64,000 bases of DNA from a bacterium (GTDB lineage Bacteria; Zhuqueibacterota; QNDG01; JAGLOF01), in contig JAGLOF010000074.1 of assembly GCA_023139105.1 (NCBI GenBank), forward strand, positions 1 to 64,000. Direction: 5' to 3'. Shown in pieces: positions 34,913 to 41,451 of this stretch; positions within the stretch are counted from its first letter, which is position 1, and each line of letters starts with the position of its first letter. Made by a program: the position numbers and the translations under genes. The notes beneath the pieces were generated by a model. The model saw nothing but the letters and a program-made list of their open reading frames with translations, was not told the DNA's origin and did not search any database.

Positions 34913-37684
34913 TTATTTAATCAAATTAATTTTTTGTGTTTTGATCAGACCTTCGGACTCAAGTCTGACTAAATATGCACCTGATGCCAGATTTTCCGCT
35001 CTGAAATTAAGTCTGTGTGTTCCGGGACCATAGTTATTATCGGTCAATGTTTTTACAAGTCTACCGCGTATGTCATAGATCTTAATTGAAATATGGCGTG
35101 TCTTATCCACGGTAAACGGAATAGTTGTAGCGGGGTTGAACGGATTTGGATAATTGGGTTGAAGTGTCAGCTTATCCGGTTGAAGTGTCTCAGAATCTTC
35201 AACTCCGGTCACTACGGTTGTGGCAAAAACGCCTTTGCCATGAGTGGCGGCAACTACCCAGCCGTCTGACGGGCGGGCTACAACCATATCAACTACAACA
35301 TTACCAATGGCAACAGGGCCTTCTTGTGACCACTGCGTGGAGCCACCGTTAAGCATGGTTGTGGAGTAGAGTCCAGTACTGGTTCCAAGAAAGATCCAGT
35401 CTGTATTGCCTGCAGGCAGCCATGTTGCCCAGCGGCACGAGGGGCCTGCTCCGGAGCCGTCAATGTTTTCTTCAAGGTTTGCACTGACGTCTGTCCAGGA
35501 ACTACCACCATTATGTGAGTAAAAGACACTGGGGACGCTGTAATTTGAGAAGACGGCAATAACTTTGTCAGCATTGTCCGGATGAATGGCAAGACAGGAC
35601 ACATAACCATTTGGCAGCCCCTTGCCTGTGAAGATGTCTGTGACTGTCGCATCGGATGAATCGGCTTCATCGACACGGAAGATTTTACATCTAAATGCAT
35701 TATATGATGCATCATTTGATGTACCAAAGTAAACTATATTAGCCGGTGTCTTGCTGACGGCTATGGCGGAGATAATGGTATCAACTTCAGATGCAATACC
35801 GGGTATTGTATTCCAGCCAACAGTTGCCTTTTCATTACTGTATTTTGGAATCTGTGTGCAGTCGCCGTTTCTCCAAATTTTGTCTCGGCCTGCAAAGTAG
35901 ATACGCTTATTGTTAGCCGGATCCATAGCAGTTGGATTGATAAATTGATTTACTGTGCTGCCTTCAGGATCTACACGTGTCCACGGGCCGCCAGAAAGGC
36001 TCTGGGCATTCAATGTTTGCCAGAAAGTGACTCCGTTTTGATATGCAAAATAGGCAAAAGCACTACCATCACCTATTGCAGTAAAAGCACCATCACCGGA
36101 TATTTGAAGAGCCCAATGTGCCTGTGGACCGGCATTGCTGACGGCATATATTCCATGATCCTGTAAGCCTCCGAAGAGTACACGCTTTGATGGTGTTTTC
36201 CCATCAAGGGCTATGGTATAGAATTGTGTTGTATAGTAACCGCTGTTGAGAGTGTCCCATTTTACTTTGGCTGCAAGGTTGTCGCTAGTTATGCTTACTC
36301 CGCCGTCATGACCGGAAAGCATTTTTTGTGGTTCACCGGGCAGGAAGACCAGGCAGTGCTGATCAGGATGCTGGCCCGGCATGCTTCCCACTTCATTGGG
36401 ACTGGGATAACCGCCAACCCATGCGGCATATCGTGTGGGTTTGGTGGTGAAACCATTTGTAGAGCGGTATAAGTTTGTGCCGCCAATAAAGACTACATCA
36501 CGGTCATCGGGTTTCACTTTGACAAGCATATTATATGAGCCCTGGGGATTGTAGTCTCCTACGCGGTCTCCATAATCGGGTATGTTGTCTGAAAGGTCTG
36601 TCCACAGGCCGCCTGCGCCGGTACCGTCACCGGAAAGGTAGTTATAGCGCCACAGCATTGTGTTTAAGTCATTATGCCCCGGAGTGGCGCAGAGGAAGAA
36701 AACAGTATTTTCATCGGAAGGTGCTATGCCAATTACAATACGGTCATAGGTTGCTGGTAGTCCCGCTGGTGTAATATCGGTGAAATTAATACCATCTGTT
36801 GAGCGCCATATGCCTGGTGAAAATTGAATGCCATCATCATTACTGAAAGTAGAATATACAATACCGGTTGATGTAACATCAACGTCAGTATAGTATGACC
36901 ATTCTTTGCTACCGCCAATTACAACATTCCAGGACTGTCCGTCGTCAATAGATCTGTATAGTGTTCCGAAGGCAGCAAGATAGATCTCTTCCTGACTGCT
37001 GTTTGACGGGTCTATTGCTATATTCCATATCATATCATATGGTCTGTCAAAAACAGGAATTGATCCTTGTTGAAATACCGGTACAGGTTGCCATGTCAAA
37101 CCATTATCAGTGGATTTATATATACCTCGTCCTATGAAATAGGCACCGTCGGCACTTGCTGAATTACCGGATCCTTCTCCTGTTCCATAGTACCAGGTGT
37201 CTTCATGGCCGTTACGTATATCCTGAACCAGGCATGTGATGCTGTGCAGGGCATCAGGATGTGTCACATTGGTCCAGGAGGCACCTGCATCTGTTGAGCG
37301 GTACATGGCACCGGAGACGCCGCCTGCCAGGATTATATCAGAATTGCGAATATCAACGCCCAGTGCACGGGTGCGGCCGCCTACGTTGTAGGGCCCCATT
37401 GTAGTCCACTCTAGATCAGTCTCTGCTGACTTTGCCATTGGCTGCTGCCGGGCAAAGACCATGGCCTTGGCTTTTATATTTTGCGGTATTTCATTGGTTG
37501 CAGGATCACGTGTGCGCATAAATTCATATTGTTGGCGGCCGTATGCATCTTCTTTTTGGCCATTAATAGTGGCTGCACCTGGTTTTTGCGGTGGCTCTTG
37601 AAGCAGCCTGGCTGTAAAGAGAATTGTCATGCCCAGAACAAGCAGGCCTGATATGCTGATTATTAAAGGTTTTTTAGTGAACAT
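34913..37684 (-). CDS. Secreted VPS10/BNR-repeat protein with sorting tail
   Basis: A 923-residue protein. An N-terminal signal/anchor ('LIISISGLLVLGMTILFTA') is followed by BNR/sortilin-type repeats: 'MYRSTDAGASWTNV', 'IYKSTDNGLTWQPV', 'LYRSIDDGQSWNVV', 'FYSHNGGSSWTDVS'. These 'S.DGG.TW' Asp-box strands make beta-propellers seen in sialidases and sortilin-like glycosidases. The catalytic residues of sialidases are not identifiable. The end is a sorting domain ('YPNPFNPATTIPFTV', 'IKIYDIRGRLVKTL', 'ASGAYLVRLES'). ATG 37684 is preferred over TTG 37690 because GGAGG sits 6 bases upstream. Exported to the cell surface or medium. Confidence 0.82.
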   Translation of the reverse strand: MFTKKPLIISISGLLVLGMTILFTARLLQEPPQKPGAATINGQKEDAYGRQQYEFMRTRDPATNEIPQNIKAKAMVFARQQPMAKSAETDLEWTTMGPYNVGGRTRALGVDIRNSDIILAGGVSGAMYRSTDAGASWTNVTHPDALHSITCLVQDIRNGHEDTWYYGTGEGSGNSASADGAYFIGRGIYKSTDNGLTWQPVPVFQQGSIPVFDRPYDMIWNIAIDPSNSSQEEIYLAAFGTLYRSIDDGQSWNVVIGGSKEWSYYTDVDVTSTGIVYSTFSNDDGIQFSPGIWRSTDGINFTDITPAGLPATYDRIVIGIAPSDENTVFFLCATPGHNDLNTMLWRYNYLSGDGTGAGGLWTDLSDNIPDYGDRVGDYNPQGSYNMLVKVKPDDRDVVFIGGTNLYRSTNGFTTKPTRYAAWVGGYPSPNEVGSMPGQHPDQHCLVFLPGEPQKMLSGHDGGVSITSDNLAAKVKWDTLNSGYYTTQFYTIALDGKTPSKRVLFGGLQDHGIYAVSNAGPQAHWALQISGDGAFTAIGDGSAFAYFAYQNGVTFWQTLNAQSLSGGPWTRVDPEGSTVNQFINPTAMDPANNKRIYFAGRDKIWRNGDCTQIPKYSNEKATVGWNTIPGIASEVDTIISAIAVSKTPANIVYFGTSNDASYNAFRCKIFRVDEADSSDATVTDIFTGKGLPNGYVSCLAIHPDNADKVIAVFSNYSVPSVFYSHNGGSSWTDVSANLEENIDGSGAGPSCRWATWLPAGNTDWIFLGTSTGLYSTTMLNGGSTQWSQEGPVAIGNVVVDMVVARPSDGWVVAATHGKGVFATTVVTGVEDSETLQPDKLTLQPNYPNPFNPATTIPFTVDKTRHISIKIYDIRGRLVKTLTDNNYGPGTHRLNFRAENLASGAYLVRLESEGLIKTQKINLIK

Positions 37685-37700
37685 CTGCAACCTCCATGGT

Positions 37701-39673: not shown

Positions 39674-39708
39674 AATAAGAAATCCTGGGAACTCCAGGAT
39701 TTCTTATT
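39674..39708. terminator. Perfect 15-bp hairpin, likely bidirectional terminator
   Basis: AATAAGAAATCCTGG (39674-39688) and CCAGGATTTCTTATT (39694-39708) with a 5-base loop. It lies 39 bases downstream of the Cys-rich gene on the minus strand. Confidence 0.75.
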
Positions 39709-39746: not shown

Positions 39747-40304
39747 TTAAATAGTATAACTATTTGACCATGGCCAATATCTTCCACCGCCATAGGCACG
39801 CATTTTATATGTGCCCGGGCCATTGACAAGGTCTAATCCCCCAGGCGAAAAATTACAATAGTGTGAACCATTTTTATATACTTGATAAAAGCTTACACTA
39901 GACCTTCTGTTGTAAGTCATGCAATAAAACGTGTTAAATCCAAAATAATACGCACCTCTTATTGTAGGTGTTAAATAATCTCCACACCAATTTGTTGAGC
40001 CACCGTCATTGCATTTCCATCCGGCTAGAACGGATGAGTGGTCTAGGCATTTACTGCAATCATGTGAGCCGTTTGTCCATTTAGCTTTACATTGCTCACA
40101 AGATGTTCCGGATTCGTCACCAGGATCCAGGTCCCCCTGTGCTCCAAAACAATCTTCTCGATATAAATAAGTGTCTCCTTCACAAGATTCAGTTAATAGA
40201 TTAATAGCACCGTCGCAGCATTGGGGACTAAATGTCGCCGCTATCTGCATAAAACCAAAACATGCTATACTCAATAAAAACAGAACAGATACAAGCTTTT
40301 TCAT
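39747..40304 (-). CDS. Secreted 12-cysteine protein of unknown function
   Basis: A 185-residue protein with a signal peptide ('LVSVLFLLSIACFGFM') followed by a mature part with 12 cysteines in about 115 residues ('SPQCC', 'CEGDTYLYREDC', 'SCEQCKAKW', 'DCSKC', 'AGWKC', 'NWCGDY', 'FYCMTY', 'HYCNF') and several Trp. The even number of cysteines fits six disulphides. I do not recognise the family. ATG 40304 is used because GGAAAG lies just before it. The gene follows, on the same strand, a MauE-like and a thioredoxin-like gene, both of which act in disulphide formation in other systems, so this may be their folding client. A strong terminator follows. Confidence 0.65.
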   Translation of the reverse strand: MKKLVSVLFLLSIACFGFMQIAATFSPQCCDGAINLLTESCEGDTYLYREDCFGAQGDLDPGDESGTSCEQCKAKWTNGSHDCSKCLDHSSVLAGWKCNDGGSTNWCGDYLTPTIRGAYYFGFNTFYCMTYNRRSSVSFYQVYKNGSHYCNFSPGGLDLVNGPGTYKMRAYGGGRYWPWSNSYTI

Positions 40305-40402
40305 TTTCTTTCCTTTCAATAAAAGTCGAGTAATTAAAAAATTCCAGCTCGGAGGAGAGTCTGCTCATTTCAAAGGCATCACCCCTTTCTAATGTGAATA
40401 AT

Positions 40403-40996
40403 TTATTTTACAGGTGTATTGGAAAAAATATTGTTCAAAATTTCCTGCCTTGTCGATTCCGACAGGACACCAACAGAAGAATAGACTACACGCGCGGAAT
40501 CGTCTATCAACATAGTCGTAGGTACGTATTTAACACCATATGAATTTGCCATGGTAGTATCATTAATAGCACTTACTCCCACATCAAAACAGAGATTATA
40601 TCCTTTAGCATATTCTTTTATAGCTTCAACATCACCACGTGCAATTCCTAATATCCTTACATTATTCTCATCCTTGAGACTTGCGGTTAACTGTGTCCAT
40701 TGCGGGATATTACGCATACACTGCGGACAGGTCAGACTAAAGAAGTAGATCAAGGTCTTCTTATTTCTTTCCGTATAATTAAGTTCAAACGGCTTGTTGT
40801 CAAGTGTACTCAACGCCATAGGCGGGACTTTCATTCCTGCTTTAATTTCAAATTCATCCTTCTCTTGGCCTGCCTGCTGCTGAGATAAATATTTTTTTAA
40901 TTCTTTATTCTGCCTGGCCAGTACAACAACTTCAAAAGCAAATGCAATAAGCACAAGATAGAGTAAAATTTGAAAATTATTCGACGTCTTCATCAT
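40403..40996 (-). CDS. Membrane-anchored TlpA/MauD-like thioredoxin
   Basis: A 197-residue protein with one N-terminal membrane helix ('FQILLYLVLIAFAFEVVVLA') and a redoxin domain on the periplasmic side. The active site is 'TCPQC' (Cys90, Cys93) and the cis-Pro loop is 'VKYVPTTMLID'. It would exchange disulphides with exported proteins; MauD-like proteins do this in methylamine dehydrogenase maturation (established for that system). It overlaps the MauE-like gene by one base (TGATG) and is followed by the Cys-rich gene. AAGGAG lies upstream of its start. Confidence 0.85.
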   Translation of the reverse strand: MMKTSNNFQILLYLVLIAFAFEVVVLARQNKELKKYLSQQQAGQEKDEFEIKAGMKVPPMALSTLDNKPFELNYTERNKKTLIYFFSLTCPQCMRNIPQWTQLTASLKDENNVRILGIARGDVEAIKEYAKGYNLCFDVGVSAINDTTMANSYGVKYVPTTMLIDDSARVVYSSVGVLSESTRQEILNNIFSNTPVK

Positions 40997-41451
40997 CAGG
41001 CTCCTTGAGTTTTCTCTAACAGATAGTTGTCGGAAGTAAAAAAGTGCTTTTTATTTGTGAAAATAAAAAATGATATTGCAAACAATACACAGTCACGGAT
41101 AAATAAATTCAAGTCCACAGCCGAATCCATTAGTCCGCCAAAACAGCCACAGTCAGAAATCTTGGGGCCGCCTAATAACTGAGGGAAAATGGCAACGCAC
41201 ATAATCATTAAAAGAAAACTAATTCCCAGAGCACTCCACCGCGTTAAATATCCAGCCACAAGGCAGACGCCCAAAACCAATTCAACCGGTGGGAATAAAG
41301 CTGTAAAGGGAATAATTAAAACCGGTGGAAGGATATTGAACCTGGCGACTACATCCATAAATTCAGTTAATTGAAAGATTTTAGTAATGCCTGATAGAAT
41401 AAAGGAACCACCAATCAGCAGACGCAAAAGCAAAACGAGATACGGCCTCAT
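40996..41451 (-). CDS. MauE/DoxX-like membrane protein
   Basis: A 151-residue protein with four predicted membrane helices. 'LLIGGSFILSGITKIFQ' opens it, as in DoxX/MauE, and 'GGPKISDCGCFGG' (Cys101, Cys103) is the conserved Cys-x-Cys loop of MauE-type methylamine-utilisation proteins. It is thought to feed reducing or oxidising equivalents across the membrane to a MauD-like thioredoxin, here encoded by the next gene. AGGAGG lies upstream of the ATG. First gene of a three-gene group that ends in a 12-Cys secreted protein. Confidence 0.82.
   Translation of the reverse strand: MRPYLVLLLRLLIGGSFILSGITKIFQLTEFMDVVARFNILPPVLIIPFTALFPPVELVLGVCLVAGYLTRWSALGISFLLMIMCVAIFPQLLGGPKISDCGCFGGLMDSAVDLNLFIRDCVLFAISFFIFTNKKHFFTSDNYLLEKTQGA

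What the first reader, a model, noticed from the sequence alone, without database searches (positions are those of the whole stretch)
39747..41451. MauE-like and TlpA-like genes followed by a 12-cysteine exported protein
Seen: three minus-strand genes in a row, a MauE/DoxX-like membrane protein with Cys-x-Cys-Phe-Gly, a membrane-anchored thioredoxin with CPQC, and a secreted protein with 12 cysteines in about 115 residues. Known: MauE and MauD are needed to form the six disulphides of the methylamine dehydrogenase small subunit. Inference: this is a small dedicated oxidative-folding module for one client. The client has no family I recognise, so its role (toxin, adhesin, enzyme, metal binder) is open.
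Basis: partly seen in the sequence, partly recalled or inferred. Interest (0 to 1): 0.72.

Follow-up and report, generated by a model that had tools for sequence, protein, structure and literature searches.

The report
MauE–TlpA operon with cysteine-rich exported client
Three neighbouring genes appear to make a cysteine-rich exported protein together with two membrane-bound redox helpers that probably form its disulphide bonds, in bacteria where the usual disulphide-making enzymes (DsbB, VKOR) were not found; the client belongs to a new, very narrowly distributed family.

Summary
Observation confirmed: a minus-strand operon of MauE (40996-41451), a TlpA-like thioredoxin (40403-40996, CPQC) and a 185-residue exported protein (39747-40304) with 12 cysteines after its leader, followed by a strong hairpin. 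The client has no Pfam, NCBIfam, PADLOC or PDB relative. Profile search of 82 phylum genomes finds its domain in three places (two genera), each directly downstream of the only three copies of this TlpA type; two also have MauE. The relatives (433 and 547 residues) share leader and Cys domain, then add FN3/BACON-like and T9SS-sorting domains. Eight cysteines are invariant. Between the two copies of one genome, TlpA, intergenic region and leader form one block about 90% identical in DNA that collapses right after the leader. DsbB and VKOR were not detected in the two genomes. Some other MauE loci of the phylum carry unrelated exported Cys-rich peptides (10 in 411 kb against 0 in 455 kb control). 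Best reading: a dedicated oxidative-folding module for a diverging Cys-framework exported protein. Redox direction and client function are not shown. MauE/MauD beside Cys-rich precursors was proposed before (decRiPPter): a new variant of a known kind.

The parts
40996..41451 (-). MauE/DoxX-family membrane protein, 151 aa, DCGCFG motif (P0003)
   Evidence: PF07291 76 bits against cut-off 27; 59% identical ortholog at the same relative place in G016
40403..40996 (-). membrane-anchored TlpA/ResA-like thioredoxin, 197 aa, CPQC (P0002)
   Evidence: PF00578, PF08534 and PF13905 above cut-off; nearest solved structures are ResA and other thioredoxin-family proteins; 56% identical ortholog; only three copies at E <= 1e-15 in 82 genomes
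39747..40304 (-). exported Cys-rich client, 185 aa, 12 Cys after the leader (P0001)
   Evidence: no family match; homologous to the Cys domains of P0004 and P0007 (BLASTP with P0004 E 8e-8; independent hit of the two-row profile on the third member, E 3.7e-12; three-row profile)
40230..40304 (-). conserved leader of the client (MKKL..VSV..LL.I..FG..Q...F)
   Evidence: conserved in all three family members; 25/26 identical between the two paralogs of G016
39963..40220 (-). Cys-framework domain of the client, 8 cysteines invariant in three members
   Evidence: alignment A6
39674..39708 (-). 15-bp inverted repeat after the client, probable transcription end before the downstream MATE gene
   Evidence: fold -20.9 kcal/mol, z = -6.5, 0 of 200 shuffles as stable; the consensus terminator scan did not list it

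Best explanation
A dedicated oxidative-folding operon. The client is exported through its leader with many reduced cysteines. The membrane-anchored TlpA-like thioredoxin, through its CPQC site, forms or reshuffles the client's disulphides at the membrane. MauE, a DoxX-like membrane protein with a CxC motif, re-oxidises that thioredoxin, most likely by passing electrons to quinone, and so takes the place that DsbB or VKOR holds elsewhere. The product is a compact domain held by about four or more disulphides, built on eight invariant cysteines, that acts outside the cytoplasm; in the sister genus it is joined to FN3-like and T9SS-sorting domains and so is probably displayed on or released from the cell surface, as an adhesin, a binding protein or an effector. 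Shown: the operon, its conservation with the client, the invariant cysteines, and the absence of detectable DsbB and VKOR. Inferred: redox direction, electron acceptor, disulphide state, location of the 185-residue client, and role.
For: Operon layout with overlapping or close genes and a closing hairpin. Syntenic MauE-TlpA-client in another genus of the same family. TlpA type and client domain found at the same three places in 82 genomes. Eight cysteines invariant while most other positions change. Second cassette in G016: TlpA, intergenic region and leader form one block about 90% identical in DNA, ending at the leader/mature boundary, with 48 synonymous against 9 amino-acid codon changes in TlpA, so helper and leader stay together while the client diverges. 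No DsbB and no VKOR found in G000 and G016 (control genomes rang). Some other MauE loci of the phylum carry unrelated exported Cys-rich peptides: 10 in 411 kb against 0 in 455 kb, one-sided p = 6e-4. Established knowledge: MauE and MauD are essential for methylamine metabolism in Paracoccus denitrificans (van der Palen et al. 1997, cited in PMC7794033), and the methylamine dehydrogenase small subunit carries six disulphides (general knowledge).
Against: Redox direction cannot be read from sequence: the nearest solved relatives of the TlpA include ResA, a reductase by general knowledge. In the second G016 cassette the bases just upstream of TlpA do not resemble the MauE end seen in the first, so MauE need not be next to the client. 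Most MauE loci in the phylum have no Cys-rich neighbour (49 of 56). Three homologs from two genomes, both under 90% complete, is a small sample. Two of three members have an odd number of cysteines in the domain, and one cysteine of the CxxC..CxxC pattern varies.
Confidence: 0.55

Rival explanations
1. General periplasmic oxidation system. MauE plus TlpA serve many exported proteins in a lineage without DsbB or VKOR, and the Cys-rich protein is just one co-transcribed substrate.
For: No DsbB or VKOR found in the two genomes. MauE-family proteins occur in 49 of 82 phylum genomes, mostly without a Cys-rich neighbour.
Against: This TlpA type is confined to three places, each directly upstream of a client with the same domain, and missing from the rest of the phylum. 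TlpA and the client leader are duplicated or converted as one block. The window's genome has another, unlinked MauE beside a rhodanese-like gene that could do general work.
Confidence: 0.17
2. Metal-handling pair. The client binds copper or zinc through its cysteines and TlpA/MauE keep those thiols reduced or loaded, in the manner of bufferin clusters with DoxX (HvfX) proteins or of TlpA-Sco copper delivery.
For: A CxxC-x10-CxxC pattern (exact in P0001, similar in P0004). MauE has a weak match to the HvfX copper-RiPP maturation model (E 5e-6, 26.7 bits against cut-off 80). DoxX genes are core parts of bufferin clusters (PMC12452194). The closest solved relatives of the TlpA include ResA.
Against: One ligand of the CxxC pair is Tyr in the third member. 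No MNIO or DUF2063 gene among the neighbours scanned. No metal-transport gene recognised directly beside it. The HvfX score is far below cut-off.
Confidence: 0.15
3. Antagonistic peptide or RiPP-like cassette. The client is a secreted toxin-like Cys-framework protein, with leader and helper conserved and the mature part changing fast.
For: Sharp break between a 90%-identical block and a strongly diverged mature part at the leader end. decRiPPter proposed MauE/MauD as modifiers of Cys-rich RiPP precursors in Streptomyces (PMC7794033).
Against: No immunity, protease or ABC exporter gene recognised beside it. The relatives carry FN3-like and T9SS sorting domains, which fit adhesins, enzymes or binding proteins as well. 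Their C-terminal part has diverged almost as much as the Cys domain (42% against 33% identity), so the Cys part is not specially hypervariable.
Confidence: 0.1

Closest known systems
mau cluster: MauE/MauD maturation of the methylamine dehydrogenase small subunit
   Same: MauE plus a membrane-anchored thioredoxin-fold protein encoded next to an exported protein rich in cysteines
   Different: The client is not the small subunit (no Pfam match), no methylamine dehydrogenase genes were seen nearby, and the thioredoxin scores 20 bits against MauD's cut-off of 189
MauE/MauD-containing candidate RiPP clusters of Streptomyces (decRiPPter, PMC7794033)
   Same: MauE, once with MauD, beside a predicted precursor with at least 8 cysteines; maturation role proposed by its authors
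   Different: Actinobacterial and named only as candidates; here the clients reach 433-547 aa with T9SS tails, and the conserved unit is TlpA plus leader
Bufferin clusters with DoxX/HvfX (PMC12452194)
   Same: DoxX-like membrane protein with a signal-peptide-bearing Cys-rich product
   Different: No MNIO or DUF2063 genes seen here; HvfX model well below cut-off
DsbA-DsbB and VKOR-Trx oxidative folding
   Same: Proposed logic: thioredoxin-fold oxidant recharged by a membrane protein
   Different: MauE is a different family; DsbB and VKOR undetected in the two genomes
MauE + redoxin-like + six-bladed propeller + Cys-rich peptide loci of the same phylum (L050, L065, L068, L108, L130)
   Same: MauE and an exported Cys-rich product, often with a redoxin-like gene
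   Different: The window operon has no such propeller beside it, and its client is unrelated in sequence

Membership tests
MauE (PF07291) | profile score above curated cut-off | tested here: met
   76.3 bits against 27
MauE (PF07291) | CxCFG-type motif in the second half | tested here: met
   DCGCFGG at residues 100-106
TlpA/ResA-like membrane-anchored thioredoxin | redoxin-fold profile, CxxC, cis-proline motif, N-terminal membrane segment | tested here: met
   PF00578, PF08534 and PF13905 above cut-off; CPQC, VPTT and hydrophobic N-terminus read from the sequence
MauD (TIGR02661) | score above the equivalog cut-off | tested here: not met
   20.3 bits against 188.6
Methylamine dehydrogenase small subunit | client matches the small-subunit family | tested here: not met
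   no such match in Pfam or NCBIfam at E <= 1
Bufferin/HvfX cluster | HvfX model above cut-off | tested here: not met
   26.7 bits against 80
Bufferin/HvfX cluster | MNIO (DUF692) gene next to the precursor | tested here: not met
   none among the neighbouring genes scanned with Pfam, 34.9-42.6 kb
Dedicated oxidative-folding module | client homologs co-occur with the helper genes | tested here: met
   3 of 3 with TlpA directly upstream, 2 of 3 with MauE
Dedicated oxidative-folding module | client cysteines are in disulphides formed by the helpers | not testable with these tools
   needs biochemistry; structure prediction gave mean pLDDT 42 and 34
T9SS cargo | C-terminal sorting domain | tested here: not met
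   absent from the window client P0001; its homologs P0004 and P0007 have it: TIGR04183 at 30.9 and 35.4 bits against 23

The most novel reading that the evidence does not exclude
A TlpA-plus-leader unit that is reused with different, diverging Cys-framework domains: a bacterial counterpart of the conserved-leader, variable-core layout of animal venom peptides, with MauE serving as the membrane oxidase in bacteria without detectable DsbB or VKOR, feeding disulphide-rich domains into T9SS-displayed proteins.
Probability: 0.2. Interest if true: 0.75.

Novelty: new variant of a known kind. Interest (0 to 1): 0.5.

Why it matters
To my knowledge, how MauE/DoxX proteins work and what they serve outside methylamine oxidation is still open. 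This operon gives a compact test: one MauE, one thioredoxin and one client whose eight invariant cysteines can be mapped, in a lineage where neither DsbB nor VKOR was found. If the pair oxidises the client, MauE would be a further kind of membrane partner for periplasmic disulphide formation, and the MauE loci with unrelated Cys-rich peptides in the same phylum would become predictable sets of disulphide-rich exported proteins.

Tried and rejected
Single-sequence searches for client homologs found nothing in the phylum or in genome contigs; the one weak own-genome hit (L016) lies in a region without a convincing gene and looks like chance. AlphaFold2, alone and with a three-row alignment, gave no usable model, so no fold search was made. 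A zinc ribbon (CxxC..CxxC) was considered and marked down because one cysteine is Tyr in a paralog. Cytochrome c was rejected (no CxxCH). Lipoprotein: C15 is not in a conserved lipobox (by eye; no signal-peptide program was at hand, and no canonical AxA cleavage site is seen). Defence system: no convincing PADLOC match. Phage or plasmid origin: no client match in phages or viral contigs, and in plasmids only generic C-terminal sorting domains of P0004. 396 genomes around a Bacteroidetes genome held no client domain, but that search had no positive control. A literature search for NVEALA found nothing, and two further searches found nothing on MauE-TlpA-propeller loci. Promoter scan: no better than shuffles. 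Rfam: nothing.

Full report
Observation. The MauE gene 40996-41451 encodes 151 aa with DCGCFG and matches PF07291 at E 3.5e-21. The next gene, 40403-40996, encodes a 197-aa thioredoxin with an N-terminal hydrophobic segment, FFSLTCPQC and VPTT; it matches AhpC-TSA, Redoxin and Thioredoxin_8 above their cut-offs. The third, 39747-40304, encodes 185 aa with a hydrophobic leader and cysteines at 15, 29, 30, 41, 52, 69, 72, 83, 86, 98, 107, 128 and 150. The first two genes overlap and the third starts 98 nt later. A 15-bp inverted repeat with z = -6.5 lies just after the client and before the MATE gene, so the operon is probably just these three genes.

The client has no recognised family: nothing meaningful in Pfam, NCBIfam, PADLOC or the PDB, and no PDB match for a profile of its domain. 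Single-sequence searches found no relative. The way in was synteny. A 59% identical MauE in G016, another genus of the same family, is followed by a 56% identical thioredoxin and then by a 433-aa exported protein, P0004. Its first 128 residues align with the client (BLASTP E 8e-8). A two-row profile then found a third member in G016, E 3.7e-12, a 547-aa protein P0007 directly downstream of a second copy of the thioredoxin. Across 82 genomes of the phylum the domain occurs in these three places only (four further hits at E 0.03-0.07 look like chance), and so does this thioredoxin type at E <= 1e-15. MauE is adjacent in two of three; in the third the bases just upstream of the thioredoxin do not resemble the first copy and the contig ends there. 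The genome G016 corresponds to a MAG named Zod_Metabat.86 (contig JAFGRY010000002.1).

Anatomy of the client family. Eight cysteines are invariant (29, 30, 41, 72, 83, 86, 98, 107 in the window protein) in otherwise strongly changed sequence. The leader is conserved. P0004 and P0007 continue into BACON/FN3-like regions (weak matches and by eye) and end in FlgD/T9SS type A sorting domains (TIGR04183 above cut-off). The window protein stops after about 75 further residues, which look like a short beta-rich domain by eye only; both AlphaFold2 models were too poor to use.

A striking boundary. In G016 the two cassettes share a block running from the thioredoxin's start through the 109-nt intergenic region to the end of the client leader, about 90% identical in DNA; identity falls to background within about 30 bases after the leader. 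The thioredoxins differ by 48 synonymous and 9 amino-acid codons. The Cys domains are 33% identical, the C-terminal parts 42%, the following VCBS-like proteins 54%. Gene conversion of the upstream block, or its reuse with another mature part, would both explain this. Either way the thioredoxin and the leader travel as one unit. The whole client is diverged, so this is not proof that the Cys domain is specially hypervariable.

Wider context. Around 56 other MauE loci in the phylum (411 kb), a uniform scan found 10 exported Cys-rich ORFs at 7 loci, one of them (L121) possibly spurious, against none in 455 kb of control DNA (one-sided p = 6e-4). Six of the seven loci also carry a gene with the six-bladed-propeller motif (DUF5128 confirmed by Pfam for L050 and L068), and several carry a redoxin-like gene. 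So Cys-rich products beside MauE recur here, although most MauE loci have none. DsbB and VKOR were not detected in the window's genome or in G016, with positive controls ringing; VKOR passes its cut-off in 4 of 82 genomes. Both genomes are incomplete (87% and 89%).

Mechanism. I favour oxidation: the TlpA-like thioredoxin makes or reshuffles the client's disulphides, and MauE recharges it, probably through quinone. The direction is inferred from the mau precedent and from the missing DsbB and VKOR; sequence does not decide it, and ResA, a reductase by general knowledge, is among the nearest solved relatives of the thioredoxin. The client is most likely a disulphide-stiffened surface or extracellular domain.

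Novelty. MauE/MauD beside Cys-rich precursors was already proposed as a maturation system in Streptomyces (PMC7794033), and DoxX proteins are core parts of bufferin clusters (PMC12452194). New here are the client family, its T9SS-tailed relatives, the thioredoxin-plus-leader unit, and its setting in genomes without detectable DsbB or VKOR. I file it as a new variant of a known kind.

Noticed in passing
L068, L050, L065, L108, L130 (same phylum): MauE loci with a six-bladed-propeller-type gene, often a redoxin-like gene, and small exported peptides with 6-12 cysteines; no Pfam or NCBIfam family for the peptides scanned.
   Followed up: partly
L049 3363-5150 and L092 2399-4291 (G016): Both client cassettes are followed by VCBS/FG-GAP-like secreted proteins, 54% identical to each other; no such gene follows the window's client.
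   Followed up: partly
82 genomes of the phylum: VKOR above cut-off in only 4 of 82 genomes, while MauE-family proteins occur in 49.
   Followed up: partly
L067 4789-5226 (window's genome, contig C223): A second MauE-family protein with SCGCY beside a rhodanese-like gene, no Cys-rich exported neighbour.
   Followed up: no
window 34913-37690: 925-aa BNR/sortilin-like repeat protein with a T9SS sorting tail, two genes downstream of the MATE gene.
   Followed up: no
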